Assembly: GCA_003020925.1 (NCBI GenBank)
Contig: PXRT01000004.1
Span: 56,917 to 120,916 of the forward strand
From: Halobacteriales archaeon QS_6_64_34
GTDB taxonomy: Archaea > Halobacteriota > Halobacteria > Halobacteriales > Haloarculaceae
DNA length: 64,000 nucleotides
Direction: 5' to 3'
Shown: piece after piece, positions 19,006 through 34,571 of the stretch
How positions within the stretch are numbered: the stretch's first letter is position 1
Layout: every line of letters starts with the position of its first letter
Position numbers and translations under genes: made by a program
Notes under the pieces: generated by a model
Told to the model about the DNA's origin: nothing
The model's database searches: none
Seen by the model: the letters and a program-made list of their open reading frames with translations, nothing else

Positions 19006-20079
19006 TCACTCCGGCAGCGAGACGGCCCGGCCGGCTTCGCTGGACCGGTAGATACCATCCAGTACCCGTTGGACAGTCAGCGCCTGGTCGACGGTGTTGG
19101 TTCCGGGGGGGTCGCCGGTGGCGACGCTCTCGACGAACTGCTCCAGTTCGATGCCGTGGGCGTCATCGGACGCCATCTCGATTGCGGCGGTCCGATGGTG
19201 GTCCACGCCGGTCGAGACGGTCTCGTACAGTTCCATGTCGCCGTTGCTCAAATCGAGTCTGGCGCCGGCACCCGACCCCCGGACGACGTACTCCTGGCTG
19301 TCGGGGCGGTTCGACGCCCAGGCCACTTCGAGAGCGATGGTCGAGCCGTCGGCACAGCGGATGAAAGCCGAGACCGAGTCGTCGACGTCGAAGCCCTCGG
19401 CGCCCTGGTCCTCGCCCCACATCGACACGTACGTGTAGTTCGGACGGCTTCCGAACGTCGACCGCGTCTGTCCGGAGACCTCGACTACCTCCGGGAACTC
19501 CAGCAGATACAGCGAGAGGTCGATAGCGTGTACGCCGATGTCGATGAGCGCGCCGCCGCCGGCCAGGGGCTTGCGCGTAAACCACGAGCCGCGACCGGGG
19601 ACGCCCCGCCGGCGGAGATAGTTCGCCTCGATGTGGTCGATATCGCCCATCGTCCCGTCGTCTCGGTAGCCACGGAGCACCCGGACCGGGTTTCGAAAGC
19701 GGTTGTGGAAGCCGACCATACAGAATCCTTCGGCAGTGGTGGCAGCCTCGGCGATTCGCTCGGCGCTCTCGACGGTGTGGGCGAGCGGTTTCTCCACGAA
19801 CACGTCGAGGCCCGCCTCGAGCGCGCTGACGACGTACTCCTCGTGGAACCTGTTCGGTGTCGTCACGAGGATGGCGTCGACGCCTTCGTAGAGGTCGTCC
19901 TGTCGTTCGTAGACGGTCGCGTCGTACTGTGCGGCAAAGTGGGCTCGCGCGTCGGGGTTGACGTCCAGTCCGGCGGTGACGATATCCCCATAGCCCGCCT
20001 TCTGGAGGCGGTCGCAGTGGTGTCGTGCGATATTTCCGAGGCCGATAACGCCCAACCTGATCTCATGCATCTCACTCAT
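19006..20079 (-). CDS. Gfo/Idh/MocA-family oxidoreductase
   Basis: A 357-residue NAD(P)-dependent sugar or cyclitol dehydrogenase-like protein. The Rossmann motif GVIGLGNIARHHCDRL is at about residues 10-25, followed by the family signature FVEKPLAHT near residue 95 (the catalytic EKP), with the C-terminal alpha/beta dimerisation domain after about 125. It lies between the sugar importer genes and gdh on the same strand (38 bases from the previous stop), so it probably works on the imported sugar. Substrate unknown; a second, distant paralogue is at 32324. Confidence 0.85.
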   Translation of the reverse strand: MSEMHEIRLGVIGLGNIARHHCDRLQKAGYGDIVTAGLDVNPDARAHFAAQYDATVYERQDDLYEGVDAILVTTPNRFHEEYVVSALEAGLDVFVEKPLAHTVESAERIAEAATTAEGFCMVGFHNRFRNPVRVLRGYRDDGTMGDIDHIEANYLRRRGVPGRGSWFTRKPLAGGGALIDIGVHAIDLSLYLLEFPEVVEVSGQTRSTFGSRPNYTYVSMWGEDQGAEGFDVDDSVSAFIRCADGSTIALEVAWASNRPDSQEYVVRGSGAGARLDLSNGDMELYETVSTGVDHHRTAAIEMASDDAHGIELEQFVESVATGDPPGTNTVDQALTVQRVLDGIYRSSEAGRAVSLPE

Positions 20080-20117
20080 TGTGATGTAAAAAGCGCCGAA
20101 GACGGATAGTCCTCCGG

Positions 20118-20326: not shown

Positions 20327-21523
20327 TCAGTCGTCCGATTCGGCCTCGCTCTCAGTCAGTCCATCGCCGTCCCAGACCGCTTCGAGGGTGTGGGTGATGG
20401 CCTCGCCCGTGGCCGTATCGAAGAGATGGACGTTTCTGCGGTCGAGGACTACCTGGATGTCCTCGTCCTCCTCGATAACTGAGTCGGGGTCGATGCTTAC
20501 GAGCAACTGGTCGTTGGTGGCCTGCTTCTGTGACATCGAGGTCTCACCCTCGCCAAGCAGCATGTAGGCGAATATCTCATCGCCCATCGGCTCGAGGATG
20601 TCCGTCCGGGCGTCGATGCGCTCCGAGGGGTCGGCGACCTCCTCGTGCAGCGCAGCGGGATAGATGTCCTCGGGCCGGACGCCGAGGGTCACCTCGTCAC
20701 CGACGCCGATACCGTCGACGCTCGCCGGGTCGAAATCGAGCGAGAAGTTCTTCGTCTCGATGGCGTCCGCGGTGACGGAGCCCTCGACGAAGTTCATCGA
20801 CGGGGAGCCGATGAAGCCGGCGACAAAGAGGTTGTCGGGCTCGTTATAACAGGTCAGCGGCGGGTCGATCTGCTGAAGGCGGCCCCCGTCGAGGACGGCG
20901 ATGCGGTCCGAGAGCGTCATCGCCTCCTCCTGGTCGTGGGTGACGTAGATGATAGTCGTGTCCAGTTCCTTGTGCAGGCGCTGGAGTTCGGTCCGCATGT
21001 GGACTTTGAGCTTGGCGTCTAAGTTCGCCAGGGGCTCGTCCATCAGGAAGACGTCCGGTTCGCGCACGATGGCGCGGGCGATAGCGACGCGCTGGCGCTG
21101 GCCGCCGGACATCTCCTCGGGCATCCGTCCGAGCATCCCCTCCAGCTGGACGATGTCGGCCGCGTGTTCGACCCGACGGTCGATTTCGTCCTGCGGGTAA
21201 TCCCGGAGCCGCAGGCCAAAGGAGATGTTGTCGTAGACGTCCATGTGCGGGAACAGCGCGATGTTCTGGAACACCATCGCGATGCCCCGGTCTTTCGGGG
21301 GGAGGTTCGTGACGTCGCGGTCGCCGATGTGAACCGTCCCCTCGGTGGGGATGGTCAGCCCGGCGATGGTCTCCATCGTCGTCGATTTCCCACAGCCCGA
21401 GGGGCCGACGAAGCAGATGAACTCTCCGTGGTCGATGTCGAGGTTCATGTCGTCGACTGCGGTGACTACCTCGCCCTGGTCGTCGTAGCGTTTCGTGACG
21501 TGTTCGAGTTTGAGTTTTGCCAT
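20327..21523 (-). CDS. sugar ABC transporter ATP-binding protein (MalK/UgpC type)
   Basis: 398 residues from the ATG at 21523, which lies five bases after the permease stop. GGAG overlaps that stop and serves as the Shine-Dalgarno. An in-frame extension upstream is the permease gene in another frame. Motifs: Walker A GPSGCGKSTT, signature MSGGQRQRVAIARAIV, Walker B VFLMDEPLANLD, and VTHDQEEAMT. The C-terminal MalK-like OB-fold regulatory domain is from about residue 240 (LGVRPEDIYPA). It powers the two permeases encoded upstream. Confidence 0.9.
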   Translation of the reverse strand: MAKLKLEHVTKRYDDQGEVVTAVDDMNLDIDHGEFICFVGPSGCGKSTTMETIAGLTIPTEGTVHIGDRDVTNLPPKDRGIAMVFQNIALFPHMDVYDNISFGLRLRDYPQDEIDRRVEHAADIVQLEGMLGRMPEEMSGGQRQRVAIARAIVREPDVFLMDEPLANLDAKLKVHMRTELQRLHKELDTTIIYVTHDQEEAMTLSDRIAVLDGGRLQQIDPPLTCYNEPDNLFVAGFIGSPSMNFVEGSVTADAIETKNFSLDFDPASVDGIGVGDEVTLGVRPEDIYPAALHEEVADPSERIDARTDILEPMGDEIFAYMLLGEGETSMSQKQATNDQLLVSIDPDSVIEEDEDIQVVLDRRNVHLFDTATGEAITHTLEAVWDGDGLTESEAESDD

Positions 21524-21528
21524 ATGTG

Positions 21529-22521
21529 TTACTCCTTGAGTGCGCCTGAGGTCAGTCCGCTGACGATGCGCTCCTGGGCGACGATGACGAGTATCACGAC
21601 CGGCAGGACGCCGACGATGCTCGCGGCCGCCATGAGGTTGTACTGCGTGGTGTACTGGGTCTGGTAGCTGAGGATACCGCCGACGATGGGCGACCACCTG
21701 GCCGCCTCGGTCGAGGTCGCCATAATCGAGCTGAAGAAGTACTCGTTGTAGACGGCGATGAAGGTCAACACGGCGGCCGTGGCCACACCGGGGGCCGACA
21801 GCGGCATGATGACCCGGAACAGCGCGCCCAGCCGGGTCGTTCCCTCGACGCGAGCGGCGTCCTCCAGCCCGTCCGGAATCTGGCCGTAGAACGTCGTGAG
21901 GATGAAGATAGACAGCGGCATGAACAGCGCGCTAAACGGCAACACCATCGACCCCGGCGTGTTCAGCAGACGCGGCGGGGTAAACAGCGGGATGTCCGTA
22001 AATGGCAGCGTAATCGGCGCGTTGCCGGCGAACGCCTGGAACAGCGGGATGACGAAGGCCGCCGGCGGGAAGTAGCTGACCGCCAGAATCCCGAGCATCA
22101 GGAACGCCCGCCCGGGGAACCGCAGTCGGCCGAAGACGTATCCCGCGAGACTCGCCACGACGATGACGATGACCGTCGTCGTCACCGCCAGGGCGAAGCT
22201 GTTCAGCATGTACAGGTGAAACGGGACCTGCTCGAAGACGGTGATAAAGGCCTGCGGGTTGAACCCCTTTGGCACCGGCAGCGGGAACGTCGCGCTGACG
22301 CCAAAGAGGGTCACCTCCGGCAGGAAACTCCCCGCGAGCAGCCGCCCGGACGGCGTGACCGCCAGGACGAGCAGCCAGTAGAACGGGAACAGCGTCGTCA
22401 CCAGGAAGAAAGCCATTGCGACGTAGAACAGCGCCCTGTACACCCGTTCGGGGTCCTGGATGGCGCGCTGTGTCCATCGAGCGAGCGGTCCCTCACTTTC
22501 GTTGTCGGTTGCGGTTGCCAT
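21529..22521 (-). CDS. sugar ABC transporter permease (MalG type)
   Basis: A 330-residue protein with six hydrophobic helices and the EAA-like loop LEDAARVEGTTRLGALFRVI near residue 225. The C terminus RIVSGLTSGALKE is typical of MalG-type carbohydrate permeases. It starts one base after the stop of the MalF-type permease and is followed by the ATPase, confirming an operon in the order binding protein, MalF, MalG, ATPase. Confidence 0.9.
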   Translation of the reverse strand: MATATDNESEGPLARWTQRAIQDPERVYRALFYVAMAFFLVTTLFPFYWLLVLAVTPSGRLLAGSFLPEVTLFGVSATFPLPVPKGFNPQAFITVFEQVPFHLYMLNSFALAVTTTVIVIVVASLAGYVFGRLRFPGRAFLMLGILAVSYFPPAAFVIPLFQAFAGNAPITLPFTDIPLFTPPRLLNTPGSMVLPFSALFMPLSIFILTTFYGQIPDGLEDAARVEGTTRLGALFRVIMPLSAPGVATAAVLTFIAVYNEYFFSSIMATSTEAARWSPIVGGILSYQTQYTTQYNLMAAASIVGVLPVVILVIVAQERIVSGLTSGALKE

Positions 22522-23575: not shown

Positions 23576-25057
23576 TTACTGTGACTCGGTGTCCTCAAGT
23601 GCGCTCTGGAGTGTCGCCATCGCGTTGGCCGAGGAGGTGTCCTGACCGACCGCGCGGTTGGCCTGCTGAGAGATGTTGCTCGACTGGTCGCTCCAGACGG
23701 CGGTCACCGGGCGCGCCATCGTGTTGCTTCCGGCAACCTGCAGGGTGTCCATGTACCGACCGACGACGTCGACGTTCTGGGCCTCACTGGAGTTGAACAG
23801 CTCCGGCCGGGGCGGGAGCCAGCCCTGGACGGACAGCAACATGAGCTGGAAGTCCGGCTCCATCGCGGCGCGGATGACCTCGGCGACGTCCTCCTGGTTG
23901 TTGATGTTCGGGTTGACGGTCATGTGCCAGCCACCGAGGGCGGCCGTGGTGCCGCCGGTGCCGGGCTGGGCGGCCTCGCTCTCGGGGACCGCGTACGGAA
24001 TCGGCATCGCGCCGAGGTCCTCGCCCAGTGCGGGGTCTTCGGTCTCATCCGGGTTCCGGCCGGTCAACGCGAGCGAGTACGGCCAGTTGCGGTGGAACAC
24101 GGAGTTGCCCTCCGCGAAGGGCGTCCGGGCGCCCTCTTCTATCCAGCCGAGGATGTTGGTGGGAGTAAAGCCCCCACCGTAACTCCGGAACTGACTCTCG
24201 GCGTTTTCGTCGTGGACGAACTTCCGCATCATGTTCAGCGAGCTGATGACCTCCGGGCGGTCGACCGTGACCGGACGGTCCCCGATGGGACCGAAGAGGT
24301 TGTCGCGGCCGCCGAAGTAGGCGCCGCCCCACGAGGACATGACCTCGTTGAACGTACAGCAGGCGGTCCCCTCGTAGATGTCCCACTGGGTCGTAAAGCC
24401 GTACTGCGTCCCGGCGTTGTCCTGGACATCCTCGGCGATGGTGGACCACTCCTCCCAGGTCATGGGCTCGGTCGCCCAGTTGTCCGATTCGGGGCTATAA
24501 CCCGCGTCTTCGACGAGGTCCTTGCGGTACTGCATCGTCGGGAAGTCCGGGAACACCGGCACGCCGTAGAGGTCGCCGCTGCCCGGGTCACGGGCCGTTT
24601 CGGTGAACGCGGTGAAGTAGTTCTCCGAGATGTCATTGACCAGTTCGTCGGGCAGGGCCTCCGAGAGGTTCTGGAGCTGGCCGCGCTGGATGAAGATGTT
24701 CGTCCAGCCGTTGTCCATCAGGAACATGTCGGGGTCCGTCTCCCCGGCGTTCAGGAGGCGGTTGTAGTTCGACCGGGCCGCACCGGTGTCCTGGTCCCGA
24801 GGGACGAACTCGACCGTGATGTCCTCGGTGAGGCCGTTGTCGTGCAGGGACTGTTTGATGGCGTCACCGTTGTTCTGGACCGCGACAGGGTCAAAGCCCC
24901 ACGTGACTGTCCGCCCCGAGCCGCCCTGGCCGCCGCCGCCAATGAGGTCCGCACAGCCGGCCAGCCCGGCTGTGACTCCCGAAACTCCGGCGGCCTGAAC
25001 GAACCGCCGTCGCGATACTGCTGACGAACGGGTCTCGTGTGTGTCGTTCTTCGACAT
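23576..25057 (-). CDS. sugar ABC transporter substrate-binding lipoprotein
   Basis: A 493-residue protein with a twin-arginine signal (SRRRFVQAAG, residues 15-24) and lipobox LAGC with Cys35. The mature sequence has the carbohydrate-binding family-1 pattern, with many aromatic residues and a conserved GGWHMTVNP block near residue 370. It is the first gene of the importer operon and lies behind two operator-like sequences (25103, 25141). Neighbouring gdh and alpha-glucosidases suggest glucose or a glucose oligosaccharide such as maltose or trehalose as ligand; the sequence alone does not decide. Confidence 0.85.
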   Translation of the reverse strand: MSKNDTHETRSSAVSRRRFVQAAGVSGVTAGLAGCADLIGGGGQGGSGRTVTWGFDPVAVQNNGDAIKQSLHDNGLTEDITVEFVPRDQDTGAARSNYNRLLNAGETDPDMFLMDNGWTNIFIQRGQLQNLSEALPDELVNDISENYFTAFTETARDPGSGDLYGVPVFPDFPTMQYRKDLVEDAGYSPESDNWATEPMTWEEWSTIAEDVQDNAGTQYGFTTQWDIYEGTACCTFNEVMSSWGGAYFGGRDNLFGPIGDRPVTVDRPEVISSLNMMRKFVHDENAESQFRSYGGGFTPTNILGWIEEGARTPFAEGNSVFHRNWPYSLALTGRNPDETEDPALGEDLGAMPIPYAVPESEAAQPGTGGTTAALGGWHMTVNPNINNQEDVAEVIRAAMEPDFQLMLLSVQGWLPPRPELFNSSEAQNVDVVGRYMDTLQVAGSNTMARPVTAVWSDQSSNISQQANRAVGQDTSSANAMATLQSALEDTESQ

Positions 25058-25102: not shown

Positions 25103-25124
25103 ATTAACCACAGTCGTTGTTAAT
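25103..25124 (-). promoter_or_regulatory. operator-like site next to the importer promoter
   Basis: ATTAAC-N10-GTTAAT, a perfect 6-base inverted repeat. Read on the minus strand it contains TAACAA followed by a variant right half. Its centre is about 25 bases upstream of a TATA-like ACTTAACTA (25083-25091), nearly the same distance as between site 30923 and the TATA box of the glucosidase operon. The TATA box predicts transcription starting about five bases before the ATG at 25057. The remaining part of the 324-base gap (25158-25381) is AT-rich and holds a further TAACAATC half-site near 25178; I see no gene in it. Confidence 0.45.
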
Positions 25125-25140
25125 GAGTTTTAAACTCGGG

Positions 25141-25157
25141 TACAACAAGGATTGTTA
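25141..25157 (-). promoter_or_regulatory. TAACAA-N7-TGTA motif upstream of the sugar importer
   Basis: On the minus strand TAACAA-TCCTTGT-TGTA. It has the symmetric core ACAA-N6-TTGT and the same spacing as the sites at 26510, 26623 and 30923. It lies 84-100 bases upstream of the binding-protein gene. Confidence 0.6.
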
Positions 25158-25381
25158 CTGATAAATCCCGGCTGAAGCTAACAATCATTATATAAATATC
25201 CCGGCGCTCCGTGACTGGCGCTCCGGAGGGAGAATCTCAAACGCACAAACTGTGGTACAATTTATTCAGCCGCGTCACTGGTGCTCCTGTGTGGACAGCC
25301 CCCTCAAAACGGTGTCGGTCCAGTAATCGCCGTCAAAAGAACTGCGACACAGAGCGACGTACAGCCGGGCACTCGGGCTGA

Positions 25382-26458
25382 CTAGTCGTAGCGGACGTCG
25401 GTTATCGTGATTTCGGTGGCCTCGATTGTCTCGAGGACGGCCCCCCAGCCACCGATGTCGTACTGCTTCCCGTCGGCCTCAAGAGTGAGATTGATACGGC
25501 CCGCAAGCTGGGCCAGCGGGACCGGGTCCTGGCGACCCATGGAGCTGCCGGTGTAATCGATGCTTACGACCTGACCGGTCAGGTCGACCGGCTCCTTCGT
25601 GTCGGTCTCGTACCCCTGGACGGTAGCCTCGACCGTCGCGCCCTTCGCCAGAATCGGCTCCAGGTCCCGGACCGCATGGCGCAGGTCCACGTAGGTCGTC
25701 GGCGTCTCCGGGGTGCGAACGGTGTACACCGTCTCCCATATCTCCCAGAGACAGGTGAGGAAAAACCAGTGGAACAGATAGGTGTGGGTGCGGTCGTTGA
25801 CGAGCACGCCGTACTCGTTGACGGACTGCCGGTGGGGGGCAAAACAGGTCCAGCGACGGTCGACAAGCACCAGAAACGGCGACGGGATATCCCGGTGACG
25901 GGTTTCCGTACACGCGCCCTCTATCTTCGACTGGTCGGGAATGTCGTCGTCTGAATTGGTACAGATGCTGAGCTTGATGTTGACGCCCCGGTCGTGGGCG
26001 GCGACAAGCTCCGACCGGAGCGCGCGAAACTGCTCGGTGTCGACGCCCAGTTGAATCTGCTGGTCCGCAGCGCCGATGAGTTCCTTCGCTCGCTTGAGCA
26101 CCGTGTCGAACCGCTTGACGATGCTCACCTCGTGGTCTGACATCTCCGGCTCGTTCCACCGTTTTTCGATGGCCGCCGCGGCGTCGAGATACTTGCTCGA
26201 CTGGGAGCGGAGGTCTTCGAGGACCCCCTGTGGGTCGTGTGCCCGAGCGGTGAGCGAGTCCTGCTGGAAGGTCTCGATGTATCCCTTCGATTCGAGGTCC
26301 CGGAGCACGTCATAGATACGCGGGTCCGGCACCTCGGAGGCGTCGGCGATATCCGTCGCCGAGGCCGTCCCAAGCCCTAACAGCGCGACGTAGGCCTCCG
26401 CCTGATACGGCGAGAGACCTGCGTCTTCCAGTGTCGCTGTCAGTTCGTCGTCGTCCAT
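25382..26458 (-). CDS. TrmB-family sugar regulator of the importer/glucosidase locus
   Basis: A 358-residue regulator with an N-terminal TrmB winged helix (residues about 10-80: SPYQAEAYVALLGLGTASAT, then VPDPRIYDVLRDLESKGYIE), a middle PLD-like region, and a C-terminal beta-rich sensor domain (residues about 265-355). It lies directly upstream of the sugar importer on the same strand. A TAACAA-N7-TGTA motif overlaps its own predicted TATA box, and the same motif lies before the importer and glucosidase operons, so it is the best candidate for the protein that binds this motif. GfcR, encoded divergently, is the alternative. Confidence 0.85.
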   Translation of the reverse strand: MDDDELTATLEDAGLSPYQAEAYVALLGLGTASATDIADASEVPDPRIYDVLRDLESKGYIETFQQDSLTARAHDPQGVLEDLRSQSSKYLDAAAAIEKRWNEPEMSDHEVSIVKRFDTVLKRAKELIGAADQQIQLGVDTEQFRALRSELVAAHDRGVNIKLSICTNSDDDIPDQSKIEGACTETRHRDIPSPFLVLVDRRWTCFAPHRQSVNEYGVLVNDRTHTYLFHWFFLTCLWEIWETVYTVRTPETPTTYVDLRHAVRDLEPILAKGATVEATVQGYETDTKEPVDLTGQVVSIDYTGSSMGRQDPVPLAQLAGRINLTLEADGKQYDIGGWGAVLETIEATEITITDVRYD

Positions 26459-26509
26459 TCGTCTCCCTGCTGTGTGGTCGTTCGGTAGCTGTTTTCTGGT
26501 TCCATATTT

Positions 26510-26526
26510 TACACCCCTTGTTGTTA
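26510..26526 (-). promoter_or_regulatory. TAACAA-N7-TGTA motif over the trmB promoter
   Basis: On the minus strand TAACAA-CAAGGGG-TGTA, continuing AAAT. The last bases merge with a TATA-like GTAAAATATGG that would give a start about 24 bases before the ATG at 26458. Overlap with the TATA box fits autorepression. Confidence 0.55.
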
Positions 26527-26622
26527 TTTTTGAGACGTAATTGTGGGTACTTTTCTACTTCGGTACGCTACGGACGCCGTTCCCGTGGTGTGGCACCCGT
26601 CGACCGATTTCGTGTGATTCAA

Positions 26623-26639
26623 TAACAATGGGCGTTGTA
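26623..26639 (+). promoter_or_regulatory. TAACAA-N7-TGTA motif between trmB and gfcR
   Basis: TAACAA-TGGGCGT-TGTA, continuing AAAT exactly as at 26510, so a TATA-like stretch again overlaps the right half. It faces gfcR, which would then have a second promoter with a leader of about 165 bases. The 373-base gap 26459-26831 otherwise contains no convincing gene. Confidence 0.55.
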
Positions 26640-26798
26640 AAATTCTATTGCATGAGAGATAACCGTAGCCGGAGGGCCCGACCCGGGTACACCGACCACG
26701 GGACGTCACCGGAGGAGATACTGGTCCGTTCCTCGGGGCCGCGCCCGAGTGTGTGGCAGGCCGGAGTGGGACCCGCTGATATCGCGGCCAAAAGGCAT

Positions 26799-26808
26799 TG
26801 ATATTAAG
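26799..26808 (+). promoter_or_regulatory. TATA box of gfcR (leaderless)
   Basis: TGATATTAAG centred about 28 bases before the ATG at 26832, the distance expected for a leaderless haloarchaeal transcript. Confidence 0.5.
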
Positions 26809-26831
26809 CCCTGCCGGACAGACGTTCGCGT

Positions 26832-27473
26832 ATGAAGAATATCGACGACCTCGTCGACAGTGCAGCGGACCTCGCCGAGCGAGGACTGTCCAAGGGTGAG
26901 ATAGCCGACGAACTGAACGTCTCCCGCGAGACTGCGAGCTGGCTGGTCGAGCGGAGCGGGTCCGGCCCCACGCCGACGGAGACGCCCAAGAGCGGTCCCC
27001 ACGACATCCACGTCGACTGGTCCGCGCTGGGACGGGACAGCGCGCGGCTCCATCACGTCGGCTGTGCGATGGCCGACCTCCTCTCGAAGCAGGGCGAAGA
27101 CGTCGACCTCACTATCGGCATCGAGAAGGCCGGTGCGCCGCTGGCCACCACGGTCGCACGGGAACTGGATACGGACCTCGGGACCTACGCTCCCTCGAAA
27201 CACCAGTGGGACGACGACGAGAGCGACACCTCCGATGGCTCGTTCTCCCGGAACTTCGCCCAGATTCGGGACCGGGACTGCTACGTCGTCGACGACACCA
27301 TCACCAGTGGCAACACGATGACCGAGACCGTCGATGCCATCCAGAAACAGGGCGGCAACCCCATCGCCTGTGTCGTACTGGCCGACAAGCAGGGCATCGA
27401 AGACATCCACGGCGTCCCCGTCTACTCGCTGTTGCAGGTCATCCGCGTGGGCAGCGACGACCCCTCGGCCTGA
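26832..27473 (+). CDS. gfcR: GfcR, glucose/fructose catabolism regulator
   Basis: A 213-residue protein that joins an N-terminal helix-turn-helix (residues about 10-45, LAERGLSKGEIADELNVSRE) to a phosphoribosyltransferase domain resembling orotate phosphoribosyltransferase. The PRPP motif CYVVDDTITSGNT is at about residues 156-168. In Haloferax volcanii GfcR activates genes of sugar degradation, apparently using the transferase fold as a metabolite sensor. Here it is divergent from the TrmB-type regulator, and its likely target genes (gdh, kdgK, pyk) are also in this window. Confidence 0.9.
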   Translation: MKNIDDLVDSAADLAERGLSKGEIADELNVSRETASWLVERSGSGPTPTETPKSGPHDIHVDWSALGRDSARLHHVGCAMADLLSKQGEDVDLTIGIEKAGAPLATTVARELDTDLGTYAPSKHQWDDDESDTSDGSFSRNFAQIRDRDCYVVDDTITSGNTMTETVDAIQKQGGNPIACVVLADKQGIEDIHGVPVYSLLQVIRVGSDDPSA

Positions 27474-27503
27474 ACGCCGGACGATAAACACCGGTTTCGA
27501 CGG

Positions 27504-29216
27504 CTACTCGAGCCGGAACACGCGGGCCTCGTAGGGTTCGTGGGCCGTCGTGGGCGTGATGGCGTCCCGGTCGTAGTTCGACAGCAACAGGTCGGCGTCC
27601 TCGACCGTCGTCGGAAGCTCCACGGGTTCCCGGTCCGCCGAGAAGTTGAGCACCGCGAGCATCCGCTCGCTGACGCCACCGTCGGGGTACTCAAGCGTCT
27701 GTGTGTAGGCGGCCAGTCGTTCGTGCTCGGGGTGGAGGTCCTCGTATGTGCCATAGACGAAGGCGTCGTGTTCGGCGCGCAACTCGATGAGCGAGCGGTA
27801 GTACGCCGTGACTGAGTCGTCCGCCTGGGCGGCGACGTTGACCTCCTCGTAGTTGGTGTTGACCGGGAGCCACGGTTCGCCGTCGGTAAAGCCCGCGTGG
27901 TCGCTGTCGTCCCACTGCATCGGCGTCCGGGCGTTGTCCCGCGAACGATACCCCACGATGTCGGCGACCTCCTCGAAACTGTCGTACTGTCCGGAGTCGA
28001 GCAGCTCCCTGGTCGCCCGTCGAGCGTCGACGTCCGCCAGACTCTCCACGTCCGTCCACTGGGCGTTGGTCATCCCCAGCTCCTGCCCCTGATAGACGTA
28101 GGGCGTCCCGGAACGGGTCAGCATGAACGTCCCGAGCATCGTCGCCGACTCGCGGTGGTACGTCTCGGGGTCGCCGTAGCGAGAGACGACCCGTGGCTGG
28201 TCGTGGTTCTCCCAGAACAGCGCGTTCCAGCCCTCCGCCGAGAGCCCGTCGTGCCACCGGCGGGTTATCTGTTTGAGTTCGGGCAGGTCCCAGTCGCCGA
28301 CGCTCCAGCGCTTGCCGTCCTCGTAGTCGAGCTTCGTGTGCTGGAAGTGAAAGGCCATGTCCAGCGGGCCGTCCGTCCCCGCGTACTTGCGGGCCTGCTC
28401 GACGCTCAGCTGCGGCATCTCGCCGACGGTCATGGCGTCGTAGTTCGAGAGGACCTGCTCGTCCATCGCCTCGAGATACGCCAGCAACCGGGGGCCGTCG
28501 ACGAAGTGCCGTGCACCGGTCCACTCGGCATCGGGGTCGCCGTCCGGTAGCCCGGCCGCCTTCGAGAGCAGATTGATGACGTCCAACCGGAATCCGTCGA
28601 TGCCCTTCTCCAGCCACCACTCCATCGTGTCGAAGATGTCCCGCCGCACCGCCGGATTTCGCCAGTTCAGGTCCGGCTGTGACTCGTCGTACAGATGTAG
28701 GTAGTACTTGCCCCGTTCCTCGTCGTACGTCCAGGCGGACCCGCCGAAAAACGACTCCCAGTTGTTGGGCGCCTCGCCGTCCTCGCCCTCGCGCCAGATG
28801 TAGTAGTCCTCGTAGTCCGGGTCGCGCCGTCGGGAGCGCTGGAACCACTCGTGGTCGACGGAGGTGTGGTTGACGACGAGGTCCATCACCAGCCGCATAT
28901 CCCGCTCGTGTACCTGTGCCAGTAGCTCCTCCCAGTCGCCCATCGTCCCGTACTCGTGGTGGATGGAGCGGTAGTCGCTGATGTCGTAGCCGTTGTCGTG
29001 CTGTGGCGACTCGTACACCGGGTTCAACCAGATGGCGTCGGCGCCCAGGTCAGCGACGTGGTCGAGTCGGTCGATAATCCCGGGAATGTCGCCGATGCCG
29101 TCGCCGTCGCTGTCTGCGAAGCTTCGCGGGTATATCTGATAGACGACCGACTCCTTCCACCACGTTCGCTCAGCCTCCGGGACCGGGCAACTGGTCTGTT
29201 GTGGTGGTTTGGTCAT
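27504..29216 (-). CDS. alpha-glucosidase, GH13 (second gene of pair)
   Basis: 570 residues from the ATG at 29216, two bases after the stop of the upstream paralogue; the longer in-frame version would run into that gene. GH13 signatures: VVNHTS (region I), DGFRLDVIN with the nucleophile Asp, MTVGEMP with the acid/base Glu, and ENHDQPRV with the transition-state Asp. The group is oligo-1,6-glucosidase / alpha-glucosidase. No signal peptide, so it acts inside the cell on imported oligosaccharides, releasing glucose for Gdh or the ROK kinase. Its N terminus has a Pro/Gln-rich extension of about 18 residues compared with its neighbour. Confidence 0.9.
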   Translation of the reverse strand: MTKPPQQTSCPVPEAERTWWKESVVYQIYPRSFADSDGDGIGDIPGIIDRLDHVADLGADAIWLNPVYESPQHDNGYDISDYRSIHHEYGTMGDWEELLAQVHERDMRLVMDLVVNHTSVDHEWFQRSRRRDPDYEDYYIWREGEDGEAPNNWESFFGGSAWTYDEERGKYYLHLYDESQPDLNWRNPAVRRDIFDTMEWWLEKGIDGFRLDVINLLSKAAGLPDGDPDAEWTGARHFVDGPRLLAYLEAMDEQVLSNYDAMTVGEMPQLSVEQARKYAGTDGPLDMAFHFQHTKLDYEDGKRWSVGDWDLPELKQITRRWHDGLSAEGWNALFWENHDQPRVVSRYGDPETYHRESATMLGTFMLTRSGTPYVYQGQELGMTNAQWTDVESLADVDARRATRELLDSGQYDSFEEVADIVGYRSRDNARTPMQWDDSDHAGFTDGEPWLPVNTNYEEVNVAAQADDSVTAYYRSLIELRAEHDAFVYGTYEDLHPEHERLAAYTQTLEYPDGGVSERMLAVLNFSADREPVELPTTVEDADLLLSNYDRDAITPTTAHEPYEARVFRLE

Positions 29217-29218
29217 GG

Positions 29219-30877
29219 TTACTCCAGTCGATAGACGCGTGCTTCGTAGGGTCGCAGCGTCAGCGAGGCGCCCGCTTCCGTCGGCGGGTTGTAGTTCGAG
29301 CACAGCAGTTCCTCGGTACGGGCGGCGTCGTCGAGTGTCACTGTCGTCTCCGTGTCGTCGACGTTCAATGCCACTAAAACGGCGTCGTCTTCGAGTTCCA
29401 TCCGATAGGCCCACACGGATTCGTGGTTCGGAAGCAAAAGGTTATACGCACCATATATCAACTCCTCGTGGGTTTCTCGCAGTTCGACGAGGTCGCGGTA
29501 GTAGTGAAGCACCGAGTCACGGTCGGTCACGGCGGCCGCCGCGTTGATTGTCTCGTGGTTGGGGTTGACCGGGAGCCACGGCTCGCCGTCGGTGAAGCCG
29601 GCGTGTTCGCTGTCGTCCCACTGCATCGGCGTCCGGGCGTTGTCCCGAGAGCGGTCCCTGACAGCCTGCTTGACTTCCTCGAAGTCCGCTATCTCGCCCG
29701 CCTCGATAGCGGCCTCGACCTTGCCGACTGACTGGAGGTCGTCCAGTTGTTCGAGACGTTCCCACGGGTAGTTCGTCATTCCGAGTTCCTGGCCCTGGTA
29801 GACGTAGGGCGTCCCGGAGAGCGTAAACAGGAGGGTCCCCAGCAGTTTGGCGGACTCCCGGCGGTACTCGCCGTCGTCGCCAAAGCGGGAAACGATGCGG
29901 GGCTGGTCGTGGTTGGTCAGGTACAGCGAGTTCCAGCCGTCCAAGTCCGTCTGCCACTCCGAGAAGACGGCCTTGAGGTCGGTGAGGTTCCACTCGCTCG
30001 GGGAGAGCCACCCCGATTTCTGGTCGACGGACATATGTTCGAAGTGAAAGAGCATGTCTATCGGGCCGTCGGCGCCGACGTAATCGCTCCCCGTCTCCGG
30101 GTCAACGTCGAGACACTCGCCGACGGTCATCACGTCGTAGTCGTCGTAGGTCTCCGTGGCCATCTCCGTCATGTAGCCCAACGCCTCGGGGCCGTTGGTG
30201 AACTGCTCGATGCCGACCCACTCGCTGTCGGGGTCGCCGTCGGGGAGCCCCTCCGGCTTTGATATCGCGTTGATGACGTCCATCCGGAAGCCGTCGATGC
30301 CCTTCTCCAGCCACCAGTTCATCATGTCATAGACGTTCTCGCGGACGGCTTCGTTGTCCCAGTTCAGGTCCGCCTGCGTCTCGTCAAACAGATGGAGATA
30401 CTGCAGTCCGGCCGTCTCGTCGTAGTTCCAGGCGTCCCCGCCGAAGCCGCTCGTCCAGTTGTTGGGCGCCTCGCCGTCCTCGCCCTCGTGCCAGAAGTAG
30501 TACTCGCGATAGCCGTCCTCGTCGCGCCGGGACTTCTGGAACCACTCGTGGTCGACGGAGGTGTGGTTGACGACGAGGTCCATCACCAGCCGCATATCCC
30601 GCTCGTGTACCTGTGCCAGTAGTTCCTCCCAGTCGCCCATCGTCCCGTACTCCTCGTGAATAGCCCGATAGTCGCTGATGTCGTAGCCGTTGTCGTGCTG
30701 TGGCGACTCGTACACCGGGTTCAACCAGATGACGTCGACGCCCAGGCCTGCGACGTAATCCAGCTTCTCGATGACGCCCCGGAGGTCACCGACGCCGTCC
30801 CCGTCGCTGTCCGCGAAACTCCGTGGATAAATCTGATAGACGACTGCCTCCTTCCACCACGTTCGCTGCTCGTCCAT
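29219..30877 (-). CDS. alpha-glucosidase, GH13 (first gene of pair)
   Basis: 552 residues from the ATG at 30877; a GTG at 30886 would add three residues, and the TATA-derived transcription start near 30881 favours the ATG. Region II is DGFRMDVIN, region III VMTVGECL, region IV TNHDQPRI. It shares long stretches with the downstream paralogue (for example the whole QVHERDMRLVMDLVVNHTSV block), so the pair arose by tandem duplication. Cytoplasmic, family alpha-glucosidase/oligo-1,6-glucosidase. A difference in linkage or chain-length preference is likely but unproven. Confidence 0.9.
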   Translation of the reverse strand: MDEQRTWWKEAVVYQIYPRSFADSDGDGVGDLRGVIEKLDYVAGLGVDVIWLNPVYESPQHDNGYDISDYRAIHEEYGTMGDWEELLAQVHERDMRLVMDLVVNHTSVDHEWFQKSRRDEDGYREYYFWHEGEDGEAPNNWTSGFGGDAWNYDETAGLQYLHLFDETQADLNWDNEAVRENVYDMMNWWLEKGIDGFRMDVINAISKPEGLPDGDPDSEWVGIEQFTNGPEALGYMTEMATETYDDYDVMTVGECLDVDPETGSDYVGADGPIDMLFHFEHMSVDQKSGWLSPSEWNLTDLKAVFSEWQTDLDGWNSLYLTNHDQPRIVSRFGDDGEYRRESAKLLGTLLFTLSGTPYVYQGQELGMTNYPWERLEQLDDLQSVGKVEAAIEAGEIADFEEVKQAVRDRSRDNARTPMQWDDSEHAGFTDGEPWLPVNPNHETINAAAAVTDRDSVLHYYRDLVELRETHEELIYGAYNLLLPNHESVWAYRMELEDDAVLVALNVDDTETTVTLDDAARTEELLCSNYNPPTEAGASLTLRPYEARVYRLE

Positions 30878-30901
30878 ATACACCACGCTAGTACCAACCC
30901 G

Positions 30902-30911
30902 TACTTAAAAT
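30902..30911 (-). promoter_or_regulatory. TATA box of the glucosidase operon
   Basis: On the minus strand ATTTTAAGTA, about 26 bases before a start site that would lie within five bases of the ATG at 30877, so a nearly leaderless message. Confidence 0.5.
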
Positions 30912-30922
30912 TATTCCAAAGT

Positions 30923-30939
30923 TAACAATCGGTGTTGTA
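30923..30939 (+). promoter_or_regulatory. TAACAA-N7-TGTA motif upstream of the glucosidase operon
   Basis: TAACAA-TCGGTGT-TGTA with the symmetric core ACAA-TCGGTG-TTGT. It sits about 24 bases upstream of the TATA box, a position used by activators in archaea. Confidence 0.6.
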
Positions 30940-30970
30940 AATATAACCGAAACAGTTCACACCCCACCGG

Positions 30971-32323: not shown

Positions 32324-33430
32324 CTATAGCGACACGCGTTCGCCACGGTCGTCGCTGCGCTCGACCGCATCGAGAACCCGCTGGACCGCCAGCCCGTCGG
32401 CGAAGCTCGGTTCGTACTCGCCGCCCTCGGCCACTGCCGAGAGGAACTCGTAGTCCTCGTGAACGAAGGTGTGTTCCCAGCCGATGACGTGGCCCGGCGG
32501 CCACCAGTGGTCGATGTAGGGGTCGTCAGCGTCCGTCACCAGAATCGTCTCGTACCCCCGCGACCCCTCCCGGAGCACCTCCAGTTCGTTTAGCCGCTCC
32601 AGGGAGAACCGCAGGCTCCCCTTTGCCCCCTCAATCTCGATGGTGTGGTCGTTCTTGTGGCCGTTGGCAAAGCGCGACGCCTCGAGGGTTCCTACCACAC
32701 CGTTCTCGAAGTCCACTTGCGCGCTGTAGGCGTCGTCGACCGTGACCGGGCGGGTCCCGCTGCCGTCTTCCACTGGTCGCTCGTCGACGAACGTCCGGAG
32801 GTGACCGGAGACTTCGGCGATGTCGCCCACGAGAAAGCGTGCGAGGTCGACCGTGTGCGCACCCAGGTCGCCCAGCGCGCCGCTGCCGGCCATCTCGGCG
32901 TCGTTGCGCCAGGACCACGGCGCCTCCGGGTCGACCAGCCAGTCCTGGAGATATCGCCCCCGGAAGTGGTGGAGTTCGCCGAGGTCGCCATTTTCGATGA
33001 GCCGCTTTGCGTACTGGACGGCCGGGACGAACCGGTAGTTGAACGCGACGCCGGCCGGGACCCCGGCGTCGCTCGCCGCGTCGGCCATCGCCTCGGCGTC
33101 CTCTAAGGTGGGCGCGAGCGGCTTCTCACAGAACGTCGGCGTGCCGGCCTCCAAGGCGGCGATGGAGGGCTCCGCGTGGACGTGGTTCGGCCCGAGGTTG
33201 TAGAACACGTCCACCTCGTCGACCACGTCGCGCCAGTCGGTGGCGGTGCGGGCGAAGCCGAGTCGGTCGGCGGCGTCGGCTAACGCCACCTCATCGCGGC
33301 CGACGATGACCTCGCGGTTCACCTCAGGGGCGTCCTCGAAGAACATCGGGAGCCGAGCGAAGGCGTTGGCGTGGGCGTTGCCCATGAAGCGGTAGCCGAG
33401 GACGCCGATGTCGAGTGGGTCTGCGGTCAT
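32324..33430 (-). CDS. Gfo/Idh/MocA-family oxidoreductase
   Basis: A 368-residue NAD(P)-binding protein. The nucleotide site is IGVLGYRFMGNAHANAFARL (residues about 8-27) and the catalytic motif TFCEKPLAPT is near residue 95. The DLGAHTVDLARFL block near 180 is typical of the C-terminal domain. It begins seven bases after the stop of the TIM-barrel isomerase on the same strand, so the two form an operon. Such pairs usually oxidise and epimerise myo-inositol or keto-sugars. The substrate is unknown. Confidence 0.85.
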   Translation of the reverse strand: MTADPLDIGVLGYRFMGNAHANAFARLPMFFEDAPEVNREVIVGRDEVALADAADRLGFARTATDWRDVVDEVDVFYNLGPNHVHAEPSIAALEAGTPTFCEKPLAPTLEDAEAMADAASDAGVPAGVAFNYRFVPAVQYAKRLIENGDLGELHHFRGRYLQDWLVDPEAPWSWRNDAEMAGSGALGDLGAHTVDLARFLVGDIAEVSGHLRTFVDERPVEDGSGTRPVTVDDAYSAQVDFENGVVGTLEASRFANGHKNDHTIEIEGAKGSLRFSLERLNELEVLREGSRGYETILVTDADDPYIDHWWPPGHVIGWEHTFVHEDYEFLSAVAEGGEYEPSFADGLAVQRVLDAVERSDDRGERVSL

Positions 33431-33437
33431 TGGTGGG

Positions 33438-34406
33438 TCACTCCGCCCAGTAGGCGTCGCCCGGCTGTGTCTCGAAGACGGCGCGGTCCAGTACGTCGAC
33501 GGCCTTCTCTAAGCCCTCGCGGGCGCTGGTCAGGGAGTCCTCGTGTTCGATAGAGAGGGCGCCGTCGTAGCCGACCATCCGCAGCGTCGAGACCACGTCC
33601 TTCCAGTGGCCCTCGCCGTGGCCGTAGCCGATAGAGCGGAACAGCCACGAGCGGTCGGGTTCGTGGGTGTATGGTGTCGTATCGAGGACGCCCTTCTCTC
33701 GGGCCCGGTCCTCGTACACCTTGGTGTCCTTGGCGTGGAAGTGATGGATGGCGCCGTGTTCGCCGAGCAGTCTGATTGCTGCGGTCACGTCGATACCCTG
33801 CCAGTAGAGATGTGAGGGGTCGAAGTTCGCGCCGATGTACTCGTTGGTCCGGTCCCGGAGTTCCAGCATCCCGTGGGGCTCGTAGACGAGCATGTTCGGG
33901 TGCATTTCAATGGCCACGTCGACGCCGTGGTCGGCGGCGTGGTCGGCCAGGTCCGTCCAGTACTCCGTCGCCACCTCCCACTGGTAGTCGTGGGCGTCGG
34001 CGTGTTCCTGTGGCCAGGGCGCCGTGACCCAGTTGGGGACCTCGTCGTTCGGCCCGCCGGCTGGCAGCCCGGAGAAACACGTCACCGTGTTCACGTCCAG
34101 CTGGCCGGCAAGCGTAATTGTCTCCCGGAGTTCCGCGTCGGCCGTCCCAGCGCGGTCGTCGTCCGGATGCAGTGGGTTGTTGTGCGTCGCGAGCGCGCTC
34201 ACCCGCATCCCGTATTCGTCGAGCAGGTCGTGCAGTTCGGCCTGTGCGGCCTCGTCATCGAGCAGTTCGCCACGGTCGAGGTGGTCCGAGCCCGGGTAAC
34301 CGCCACAGCCGATTTCGACGGCGTCGACGCCGATACCGTCCAGATACGACAGCGTCTCCCCGAGGGACTGGTCACCGAGCGGAACTGTTAGCACACCGAT
34401 ATCCAT
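33438..34406 (-). CDS. sugar phosphate isomerase/epimerase (xylose isomerase-like TIM barrel)
   Basis: 322 residues from the ATG at 34406; the in-frame sequence before it has no family similarity and overlaps the divergent promoter. The AP-endonuclease-2-like TIM barrel shows IGVDAVEIGCGGYPGSDH near residue 25, and metal-ligand candidates in AIEMHPNML, ANFDPSHLYWQG and HHFHAKDTKV, ending with LSIEHEDSL. Partner of the Gfo/Idh oxidoreductase downstream, and divergent from the gluconate dehydratase gene. Together these suggest uptake of an acid sugar or inositol-like compound, which is inference. Confidence 0.83.
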   Translation of the reverse strand: MDIGVLTVPLGDQSLGETLSYLDGIGVDAVEIGCGGYPGSDHLDRGELLDDEAAQAELHDLLDEYGMRVSALATHNNPLHPDDDRAGTADAELRETITLAGQLDVNTVTCFSGLPAGGPNDEVPNWVTAPWPQEHADAHDYQWEVATEYWTDLADHAADHGVDVAIEMHPNMLVYEPHGMLELRDRTNEYIGANFDPSHLYWQGIDVTAAIRLLGEHGAIHHFHAKDTKVYEDRAREKGVLDTTPYTHEPDRSWLFRSIGYGHGEGHWKDVVSTLRMVGYDGALSIEHEDSLTSAREGLEKAVDVLDRAVFETQPGDAYWAE

Positions 34407-34571
34407 GGAGTCAGGTACAACAGGTGGTGTGATAAAAACACGGGCGGGGGCAGGGACCGCCGCCTGCCGACGGTCGCTCACGCGTACTGCTCCACCAACC
34501 GTCGCAATCGAGAACCGCGATATGGGTCGCTTTCCTCTAGACTTTTCTGACGGGACAAGCAAGCCATCCGC

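What the first reader, a model, noticed from the sequence alone, without database searches (positions are those of the whole stretch)
25103..30939. Shared operator-like motif TAACAA-N7-TGTA marks a sugar regulon
Four sites fit exactly: 25141 (minus), 26510 (minus), 26623 (plus) and 30923 (plus); a fifth, at 25103, is a relaxed version. All have the symmetric core ACAA-N6-TTGT, with one mismatch at 26510. They precede the sugar importer, the trmB-type gene, gfcR and the glucosidase operon, and I did not find the motif upstream of gdh, gad, kdgK, pyk or glk. At 30923 and 25103 the site is about 24-25 bases upstream of the TATA box (activation geometry). At 26510 and 26623 it overlaps the TATA box and continues TGTAAAAT in both (repression geometry). 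One protein could therefore activate uptake and hydrolysis while repressing regulators. This differs from the TACT-type motif I recall for Halobacterium TrmB.
Basis: partly seen in the sequence, partly recalled or inferred. Interest (0 to 1): 0.78.

Follow-up and report, generated by a model that had tools for sequence, protein, structure and literature searches.

The report
Haloarchaeal TrmB3 operator and sugar regulon
A short mirror-image DNA signal stands in front of the sugar-import, sugar-splitting and regulator genes of this salt-loving archaeon and many relatives; it is likely the docking site of the neighbouring, so far unstudied sugar regulator, which is predicted to switch genes on or off according to how far the signal lies from the gene start.

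Summary
TAACAA-N7-TGTA has 4 exact hits in the window (0 in 100 shuffles) and 5 in the 2.2-Mb draft genome. Comparison of 81 loci shows a symmetric element, TTWACAAC-N4-GTTGTWAA. It came first in an unbiased inverted-repeat search, and cross-family tests put it between genes 77:2 and 60:3.

It tracks the neighbouring TrmB-family gene (25382-26458), which by synteny and published description corresponds to HAH_1557 (trmB3) of Haloarcula hispanica, uncharacterised. It does not track gfcR: 0 of 30 unlinked gfcR promoters carry it in genomes that have the TrmB gene.

Positions fall in classes. Importer and glucosidase sites lie 50-58 nt before the start codon with a TATA-like box between (activation geometry). 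TIM-barrel and Gfo2 sites, and most relatives' trmB sites (measured to a short leader frame), lie 16-19 nt before an ATG (repression geometry). In 11 of 13 Halorubrum-type importer promoters the site overlaps the start codon.

No binding or expression data exist here; the effector's direction is unknown.

The parts
25104..25123 (-). Main operator of the importer operon; centre 56 nt upstream of the SBP start codon (activation geometry)
   Evidence: Matrix score 25.6; identical in L049; 39 of 41 non-Halorubrum SBP genes have a site, and in 39 of these 39 the strongest is 50-58 nt from an in-frame ATG
25139..25158 (-).
   Evidence: Score 16.3, centre -91; counterpart in L049 scores only 10.0
26508..26527 (-).
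   Evidence: Score 19.7; counterpart in L049 degraded, 6.6
26622..26641 (-). Conserved trmB operator in the trmB/gfcR gap, with a T-rich run on its upstream side as read towards trmB
   Evidence: Score 23.7; L049 20.6; similar arrangement before trmB in other families. Unlike most relatives, the window has no ATG 10-21 nt after this operator
30922..30941 (-). Operator of the alpha-glucosidase operon; centre 54 nt upstream of the GH13 start codon
   Evidence: Score 25.2; 6 of 18 GH13 genes in the loci have a site, all 6 at 53-55 nt; unlinked GH13 genes of other genomes have it at 50-54
34414..34433 (-).
   Evidence: Score 16.8; 3 of 25 TIM genes in the loci have a site, all 3 at 17 nt; also 17 nt at the unlinked TIM genes of L245 and L139
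41312..41331 (+).
   Evidence: Score 28.0; best whole-genome hit of model R1, E 0.0097; best match at -48/-49 in 13 of 15 readable orthologues, 7 of them at 13 bits or more
25382..26458 (-). trmB3: TrmB-family regulator, the likely binder
   Evidence: PF01978 and PF11495; only 149.5 bits against the 500 cut-off of the canonical haloarchaeal TrmB equivalog
23576..25057 (-). Solute-binding protein (SBP), first gene of the CUT1-type importer
   Evidence: PF01547
22523..23503 (-). Importer permease (MalF-like)
   Evidence: PF00528; best NCBIfam match maltose permease MalF, below cut-off
21529..22521 (-). Importer permease (MalG-like)
   Evidence: PF00528; best NCBIfam match MalG, below cut-off
20327..21523 (-). 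Importer ATPase (MalK/UgpC-like)
   Evidence: PF00005, PF17912, PF08402
29219..30877 (-). GH13 alpha-glucosidase, first gene after the 30922 operator
   Evidence: PF00128; start by the codon-usage caller
27504..29216 (-). Second GH13 alpha-glucosidase of the same operon
   Evidence: PF00128
26832..27473 (+). gfcR, divergent from trmB; predicted target in other Haloarculaceae, unlikely to be the binder
   Evidence: NF045507 GfcR equivalog, 379.9 bits against a cut-off of 300; promoter comparison
33438..34406 (-). Xylose isomerase-like TIM-barrel gene, predicted repressed target
   Evidence: PF01261
41370..41822 (+). Universal stress protein gene, predicted activated target
   Evidence: PF00582

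Best explanation
A symmetric element, TTWACAAC-N4-GTTGTWAA, stands in front of the sugar-importer, alpha-glucosidase, TIM-barrel and trmB genes of this haloarchaeon and in front of importer and trmB genes of many relatives, and it is likely the operator of the neighbouring TrmB-family protein (trmB3, 25382-26458), which would activate promoters where the element lies about 54 nt upstream of the start codon and would repress those where it lies about 18 nt upstream. Shown by the calls: the element, its conservation, its intergenic bias, its co-occurrence with trmB3 and its fixed positions. Inferred: a TrmB3 dimer reads the dyad through the invariant VPDPRIYDVL helix. When it sits just upstream of BRE/TATA it helps TBP/TFB bind (importer, glucosidase, stress protein). 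When it sits between TATA and a leaderless start it blocks initiation (trmB in most relatives with a site, the TIM-barrel gene, Gfo2 in Natrialbaceae, the importer in most Halorubrum-type loci). An imported glucoside (sucrose, maltose or trehalose type) would be the signal. Whether it releases the protein from DNA, as in other TrmBs, or strengthens binding is not known.
For: Unbiased search: of 1024 half-sites x 14 gaps in 81 loci, ACAAC-N4-GTTGT was in more loci than any other (22 of 81), with 30 intergenic and 1 coding occurrence. Cross-family test: matrix from Haloarculaceae, tested on 66 other loci, 77 intergenic to 2 coding in 44 loci; reverse direction 60 to 3 in 14 of 15 loci; 200 column-shuffled matrices averaged 5.3 and 2.3 intergenic hits, maxima 27 and 20. 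Whole genomes: the exact form is in 61 of 155 genomes with a trmB3 relative (E 1e-40 or better) and 8 of 138 without (Fisher p 2e-12, relatedness not corrected); the reversed pattern 11 of 155 and 6 of 138 (counts read by hand). 45 of 94 places lie within 11 kb of a listed trmB3-like gene, chance about 0.6% per place. Model R1, built from 57 sites of relatives: its four best distinct places in the own genome are all in this window (a loose first look, 150 of 286 candidates scored; three of the 57 sites come from the close relative L049). Unlinked targets elsewhere fit sugar use: GH13 at 50-54 nt, TIM at 17, a GH68 levansucrase at 40, a LacY/MFS-like transporter at 51; a trehalase lies about 290 nt from its site. 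The Halorubrum-type gene divergent from trmB, beyond the operator, is a GH68 levansucrase in both loci tested. Fixed positions, misses included: SBP 39 of 41 non-Halorubrum genes have a site, 39 of 39 at 50-58 nt; GH13 6 of 18, 6 of 6 at 53-55; TIM 3 of 25, 3 of 3 at 17; Gfo2 9 of 21, 9 of 9 with an in-frame ATG at 19. An AT-rich TATA-like peak lies 20-25 nt on the gene side of importer and GH13 operators and not of trmB, TIM and Gfo2 operators. The recognition helix is invariant in the 15 aligned orthologues. The dual-position rule was shown in vitro for TrmBL1 (passages of PMC4706686) and is summarised for the family (passages of PMC4158304).
Against: No binding, footprint or expression data. 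Only 34 of 77 trmB3-like genes have a site of 13 bits or more within 300 nt upstream; in some Haloarcula the site precedes an upstream aldo/keto reductase gene instead, and the 11 Haloferax loci show no site above 13 bits (helix VPTARIYD in the 8 whose start was called fully). Most TIM and GH13 genes in the loci have no site (22 of 25 and 12 of 18). Eight genomes without a trmB3 relative still have the exact form, about the number with the reversed control (6). 49 of 94 places are not near a listed trmB3-like gene, and several have no obvious sugar link. The AT-rich edge on the far side of repression-class operators is partly the element's own TTWA flank, present in every class. The physiology is awkward: activation geometry at the importer but repression geometry at catabolic genes of the same cluster. 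The Halorubrum start-codon operators are degenerate (14.7-19.5 bits). Related genomes are not independent, and gene starts come from my own caller.
Confidence: 0.82

Rival explanations
1. GfcR, encoded next door, binds the element and co-ordinates sugar uptake with central catabolism.
For: gfcR lies in 15 of the 81 loci (window, L049-L061, L116), and a strong site is centred 68-83 nt before it in 9 of these 15. GfcR is a reported activator of sugar catabolism (passages of PMC11519228).
Against: Where gfcR was sought in other genomes its promoter has no site: 0 of 30 genomes with trmB3 and 1 of 22 without. gfcR occurs in 22 of 30 tested genomes lacking trmB3, yet genomes without trmB3 carry the element only at about control rate. 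The matrix scan shows no site at -50 to -57 or -17 to -19 before gad.
Confidence: 0.06
2. The canonical TrmB (HAH_1548 type), not trmB3, binds these sites, or both share them.
For: Both operators have the same dyad spacing: the published TACT-N7-8-GAGTA includes TACT-N8-AGTA, and TrmB3 sites read WACA-N8-TGTW. Many Natrialbaceae importer sites mix the two half-sites (AACTAC...GTTGTA). The universal stress protein site reads TACTAC-N4-GTAGTA in six genomes of the genus.
Against: Of the 15 ChIP sites of canonical TrmB in Har. hispanica none is assigned to HAH_1556 to HAH_1560 (Table 2 of PMC10817205; one intergenic peak is given without gene names, and that the SBP gene is HAH_1556 is my inference). 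Recognition helices differ, IPQPRVYDTVRSL against VPDPRIYDVLRDL (two of the compared paralogues confirmed as canonical TrmB by NF047392).
Confidence: 0.07
3. An unidentified regulator unrelated to trmB3 binds the element.
For: No experiment names the binder, and eight genomes without trmB3 have the exact form. Most neighbouring genes were not annotated.
Against: The element lies at trmB3's own promoter in several families and near trmB3 in 45 of 94 places. Of 8 genes next to trmB3 scanned in 8 loci none has a regulator domain, though 5 have no Pfam match at all.
Confidence: 0.04
4. The element is chance or a general AT-rich promoter feature.
For: The short core ACAA-N6-TTGT is no commoner than its reversed control.
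Against: Cross-family enrichment, shuffled-matrix controls, fixed spacing and link to trmB3.
Confidence: 0.01

Closest known systems
TrmBL1/Tgr with the Thermococcales Glycolytic Motif (TATCAC-N5-GTGATA)
   Same: TrmB-family regulator; palindrome; activation when the site is upstream of BRE/TATA, repression when downstream (passages of PMC4706686 and PMC4158304)
   Different: Half-site TTWACAAC and a four-base spacer; the Halorubrum trmB sites (TTATCAC-N4-GTGGTA) come near the TGM half-site but keep the N4 spacer
Canonical haloarchaeal TrmB (VNG1451C, HAH_1548), TACT-N7-8-GAGTA
   Same: Same domain architecture and same dyad spacing; dual geometry reported
   Different: Only 149.5 of 500 bits to its equivalog model; 25-30% identity to the canonical paralogues in neighbouring loci (canonical identity checked); different recognition helix and half-site; its published ChIP targets are mainly gluconeogenic and none is assigned to this locus
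Pyrococcus/Thermococcus TrmB of the trehalose/maltose operon (TACT-N3-AGTA)
   Same: Regulator gene beside a CUT1-type importer; glucoside theme
   Different: Operator sequence and spacing differ; that TrmB is described as a repressor at BRE/TATA (passages)
GfcR regulon of Haloferax and Haloarcula
   Same: Sugar catabolism; gfcR itself is a predicted target in 9 of the 15 loci that hold it
   Different: Reported GfcR targets include GAPDH and pyruvate kinase (passages); gfcR promoters in 51 of 52 other genomes lack the element

Membership tests
TrmB family (sugar-sensing) | N-terminal TrmB winged-helix domain PF01978 | tested here: met
   60.8 bits, cut-off 25.6
TrmB family (sugar-sensing) | C-terminal effector domain PF11495 | tested here: met
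   210.3 bits, cut-off 22.2
TrmB family (sugar-sensing) | Tyr-Asp pair in the recognition helix and conserved Gly/Glu of the effector domain | tested here: met
   Y49, D50, G337 and E343 invariant in 15 orthologues; roles from passages of PMC4158304; equivalence of numbering judged by me
TrmB family (sugar-sensing) | Sugar-responsive DNA binding | not testable with these tools
   No assay possible
Canonical haloarchaeal TrmB (NF047392 equivalog) | Score over the equivalog cut-off | tested here: not met
   149.5 bits against 500; the separate canonical paralogues in L049 and L063 score 614 and 610.5
Canonical haloarchaeal TrmB (NF047392 equivalog) | Operator TACT-N7-8-GAGTA at its targets | tested here: not met
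   The consensus reads WACAAC-N4-GTTGTW; some half-sites are TACT-like
TrmBL1/Tgr (NF047390) | Score over the equivalog cut-off | tested here: not met
   81.4 bits against 650
TGM regulon | TATCAC-N5-GTGATA | tested here: not met
   Spacer is four bases in the consensus
GfcR as the binder | Element present at gfcR and GfcR-type target promoters independent of trmB3 | tested here: not met
   0 of 30 and 1 of 22 gfcR promoters in other genomes; other GfcR targets not examined outside the window
Same gene as HAH_1557 (trmB3) of Haloarcula hispanica | Orthology | tested here: inconclusive
   Gene order in Haloarcula loci matches the description of HAH_1557 flanking the importer (passages) and gfcR = HAH_1560 (passages); the H. 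hispanica sequence itself was not compared

The most novel reading that the evidence does not exclude
Two TrmB paralogues of haloarchaea read operators of one dyad spacing that differ at a symmetric base (TACT...AGTA for TrmB, TACA...TGTA for TrmB3), so genes such as the universal stress protein can pass from one regulon to the other by a pair of point mutations. In addition, the TrmB3 operator of one orthologous importer promoter has moved from an activating position (Haloarculaceae, Natrialbaceae) onto the start codon, a repressing position, in most Halorubrum-type loci, turning an activator into a repressor without changing the protein's specificity.
Probability: 0.4. Interest if true: 0.78.

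Novelty: new variant of a known kind. Interest (0 to 1): 0.62.

Why it matters
Haloarchaea average three TrmB-type sugar regulators per genome, and the 2024 Har. hispanica study states that, besides the canonical one, none with both domains had been characterised in haloarchaea and asks what the others do (passages of PMC10817205). This gives one of them a predicted operator, a predicted regulon and promoter positions, testable with published Har. hispanica genetics. It also offers a natural series of promoters in which one operator sits at activating or repressing positions.

Tried and rejected
Core ACAA-N6-TTGT as the motif: rejected, at control frequency.

In named Haloarcula loci the sites deviate from that formula (importer site TTAACAACACCTGTGGTTAA) or lie further from trmB.

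GfcR as binder: tested on 52 gfcR promoters, not supported. A first run picked the wrong strand for many loci and was replaced.

Site 20117 (before Gfo1) and its counterparts in L049, L054, L055 and L059: rejected, because they are the coding end (...EQQLY-stop) of a small conserved reading frame. Site 15335: inside a gene.

A longer TrmB start from the ATG just after the operator: not supported; those ATGs are mostly out of frame with trmB, which led to the short upstream reading frame.

Test that the canonical TrmB operator is TACT-N8-AGTA at fbp: only partly successful. 4 of 19 scanned FBPase-family loci, including this genome's, have it exactly (20 of 33 matches were fetched, one had no called gene); eight genus loci (L270-L273, L275-L277, L281) showed none within 250 nt.

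Structure prediction, protein homology search, viral and plasmid collections were not used.


Full report
WHAT WAS CHECKED. The window lies in a 2.2-Mb haloarchaeal draft genome (17 contigs, 80% complete), whose closest named relative in the fetched set is Haloarcula rara (93% identity of the regulator). The four exact sites exist and are far above chance in the window and in the genome. The short core is not enriched.

THE ELEMENT. The regulator at 25382-26458 has 80 relatives fetched with up to 10 kb of flanking DNA (L049-L128; 105 found, 80 kept). Genes were called with a codon-usage script. Enumerating all inverted repeats with five-base half-sites and gaps of 0-13 over these 80 loci plus window 15001-36000, ACAAC-N4-GTTGT occurred between genes in 22 of 81 loci, 30 times against once inside genes, and ranked first by number of loci. 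An iterated matrix found 164 intergenic and 11 coding sites above 13 bits, although intergenic DNA is only 0.31 of 1.56 Mb (same loci for training and count). The cross-family version, free of that circularity, gave 77:2 (44 of 66 loci) and 60:3 (14 of 15 loci); shuffled-column matrices gave means of 5.3 and 2.3 intergenic hits, maxima 27 and 20. The consensus is TTWACAAC-N4-GTTGTWAA, with C or T tolerated at the third core base.

WHERE IT SITS. The map shows the element before the SBP gene of the adjacent importer in most loci that have one (51 of 54 SBP genes with 13 bits or more within 300 nt), before trmB3 (34 of 77) or an upstream gene of its operon, before gfcR in Haloarculaceae, before some GH13 glucosidases (6 of 18), TIM-barrel genes (3 of 25) and Gfo2 genes (9 of 21). 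In whole genomes the exact form occurs at 94 distinct places in 69 of 293 genomes; 45 places lie within 11 kb of a listed trmB3-like gene, 49 do not. Presence follows the regulator: 61 of 155 genomes with it, 8 of 138 without; the reversed pattern 11 of 155 and 6 of 138 (counts taken by hand). A sequence-only model built from 57 sites of relatives puts its four best distinct places of the own genome in this window: 41312, 26622, 30922, 25104; the next is C1:69139 at E 0.75. In ten other genomes, unlinked hits precede GH13 and TIM genes, a GH68 levansucrase (40 nt), a LacY/MFS-like transporter (51 nt) and lie between a GH13 and a weakly GH15-like gene; elsewhere one lies about 290 nt before a trehalase. 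In two Halorubrum-type loci tested the gene divergent from trmB3 is a GH68 levansucrase, which points to sucrose among the candidate sugars. Several other distant places have no obvious sugar link.

GEOMETRY. Measured to an in-frame ATG, the strongest importer site is at 50-58 nt in 39 of 39 non-Halorubrum SBP genes with a site (41 genes examined; the two without are both in L061), GH13 at 53-55 in 6 of 6, TIM at 17 in 3 of 3, Gfo2 at 19 in 9 of 9, though in L068 and L085 the caller chose another start. For trmB3 the distance is to the ATG of a short leader frame: 16-19 nt in 29 of 34 genes with a site, 12 in one, none in the window, L049, L057 and L086. Importer and GH13 operators have a TATA-like AT peak 20-25 nt on the gene side; trmB, TIM and Gfo2 operators lack it there. 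All classes show an AT peak at the operator's far edge, partly the element's own TTWA flank, so a TATA box there in the second class is inferred from the 27-29 nt left to the ATG. Haloarchaeal transcripts are often leaderless (recalled), so the first class fits activation and the second repression, as shown in vitro for TrmBL1 (passages of PMC4706686). In 11 of 13 Halorubrum-type importer promoters with a site (14 genes examined) the start codon lies inside a degenerate operator, in most of them downstream of a TATA-like box (not clear in L112); the other two have it at 48-49 nt. This suggests a change of regulatory mode at one orthologous promoter, which is inference.

WHICH PROTEIN. For trmB3: linkage, co-occurrence, own-promoter sites in several families, invariant recognition helix, and the absence of sites above 13 bits in the 11 Haloferax loci, whose helix starts VPTARIYD where it was called (these also lack the adjacent importer, so the comparison is confounded). 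Against GfcR: 0 of 30 and 1 of 22 gfcR promoters in other genomes. Against canonical TrmB: none of its 15 published binding sites in Har. hispanica is assigned to this locus (Table 2 of PMC10817205, section 21 read in full), and its helix differs. The gene order of Haloarcula loci (gfcR, one or two genes, trmB3, importer, glucose dehydrogenase, canonical TrmB) matches the published description of HAH_1557 = trmB3 and HAH_1548 = trmB (passages). HAH_1557 appears in one paper of the held library, which in the passages I saw gives it no function.

WINDOW SITES REVISITED. 25104, 26622 and 30922 are the solid ones; 34414 is supported by the fixed 17-nt position in a few relatives; 41312 is the strongest match. 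25139 and 26508 score lower and are not kept in the sister species. gfcR in the window has no site at the 68-83 nt seen in 9 of 15 loci; its nearest site, 26622, is 200 nt away and matches the trmB operator of other species.

PARALOGUE OPERATORS. The published canonical motif TACT-N7-8-GAGTA (passages) includes TACT-N8-AGTA, the dyad spacing found here. At the universal stress protein promoter the best match is at -48/-49 in 13 of 15 readable orthologues (two of 17 loci could not be read). It is TrmB3-like in the window and its nearest relatives, but TACTAC-N4-GTAGTA, 10.4-12.5 bits, in six genomes of the genus. Canonical TrmB binds two universal stress protein promoters in Har. hispanica; whether either is this gene was not tested. 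The fbp check gave exact TACT-N8-AGTA in 4 of 19 loci.

OPEN POINTS. The effector and its direction are unknown. Activation geometry at the importer with repression geometry at catabolic genes would mean import genes are primed without sugar, if sugar releases the protein as in other TrmBs; or that sugar promotes binding. Literature searches listed no paper whose title or opening abstract describes such an operator; the primary GfcR paper was not held, and subscription papers are mostly absent from the library.

Noticed in passing
L051, L058-L122 upstream of trmB3 (e.g. L102, L077): In 30 of 34 trmB3 genes with an operator, an ATG lies 10-21 nt (29 of them 16-19) after the operator centre and opens a short reading frame (17-81 codons); in 29 of 30 it stops within -12 to +30 nt of the trmB3 start (where two ATGs were possible the script took the better one), suggesting translational coupling through a leader ORF. 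The peptides look different between families (by eye).
   Followed up: partly
L102, L108, L109, L111-L113, L115, L118, L119, L122 upstream of trmB3: Halorubrum-type trmB3 operators read TTATCAC-N4-GTGGTA, close to the half-site of the Thermococcales Glycolytic Motif but with a four-base spacer.
   Followed up: partly
L118 and L123 (Halorubrum kocurii, H. aidingense), upstream of SBP: L118 has an upstream-position site (49 nt) and further on a sequence resembling the L123 start-codon operator: possible intermediates of a position switch.
   Followed up: no
window 19006-20079, 32324-33430, 33438-34406: Two Gfo/Idh/MocA oxidoreductases and a TIM-barrel protein recur in the loci; Gfo2 scores 345 bits to the levoglucosan dehydrogenase model (cut-off 650), hinting at an oxidation route for glycosides.
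   Followed up: no
window, small frame ending near 20117 on the minus strand (between importer ATPase and Gfo1): A small conserved reading frame (72-95 codons stop to stop, ending ...EQQLY) follows the importer ATPase in the window, L049, L054, L055 and L059; not mentioned in the finding.
   Followed up: partly
L015 (own genome C12:14490) and L146 (C1:69140): Exact elements before a dihydroxyacetone kinase (Dak1) gene, 57 nt upstream, and between an aldo/keto reductase and a gene that looks glyoxalase-like by eye.
   Followed up: partly
L001 1501-1517 (own genome C2:63130): The fifth genome-wide TAACAA-N7-TGTA site lies before a nitrile hydratase alpha gene in AT-rich DNA; probably chance.
   Followed up: partly
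L159-L188 gfcR promoters: Outside Haloarculaceae many gfcR promoters share a stretch like GACGACACGACTATAAAAACGGCGGTCGAATT just before the start codon, mostly TATA region; a possible GfcR autoregulatory signal was not tested.
   Followed up: no
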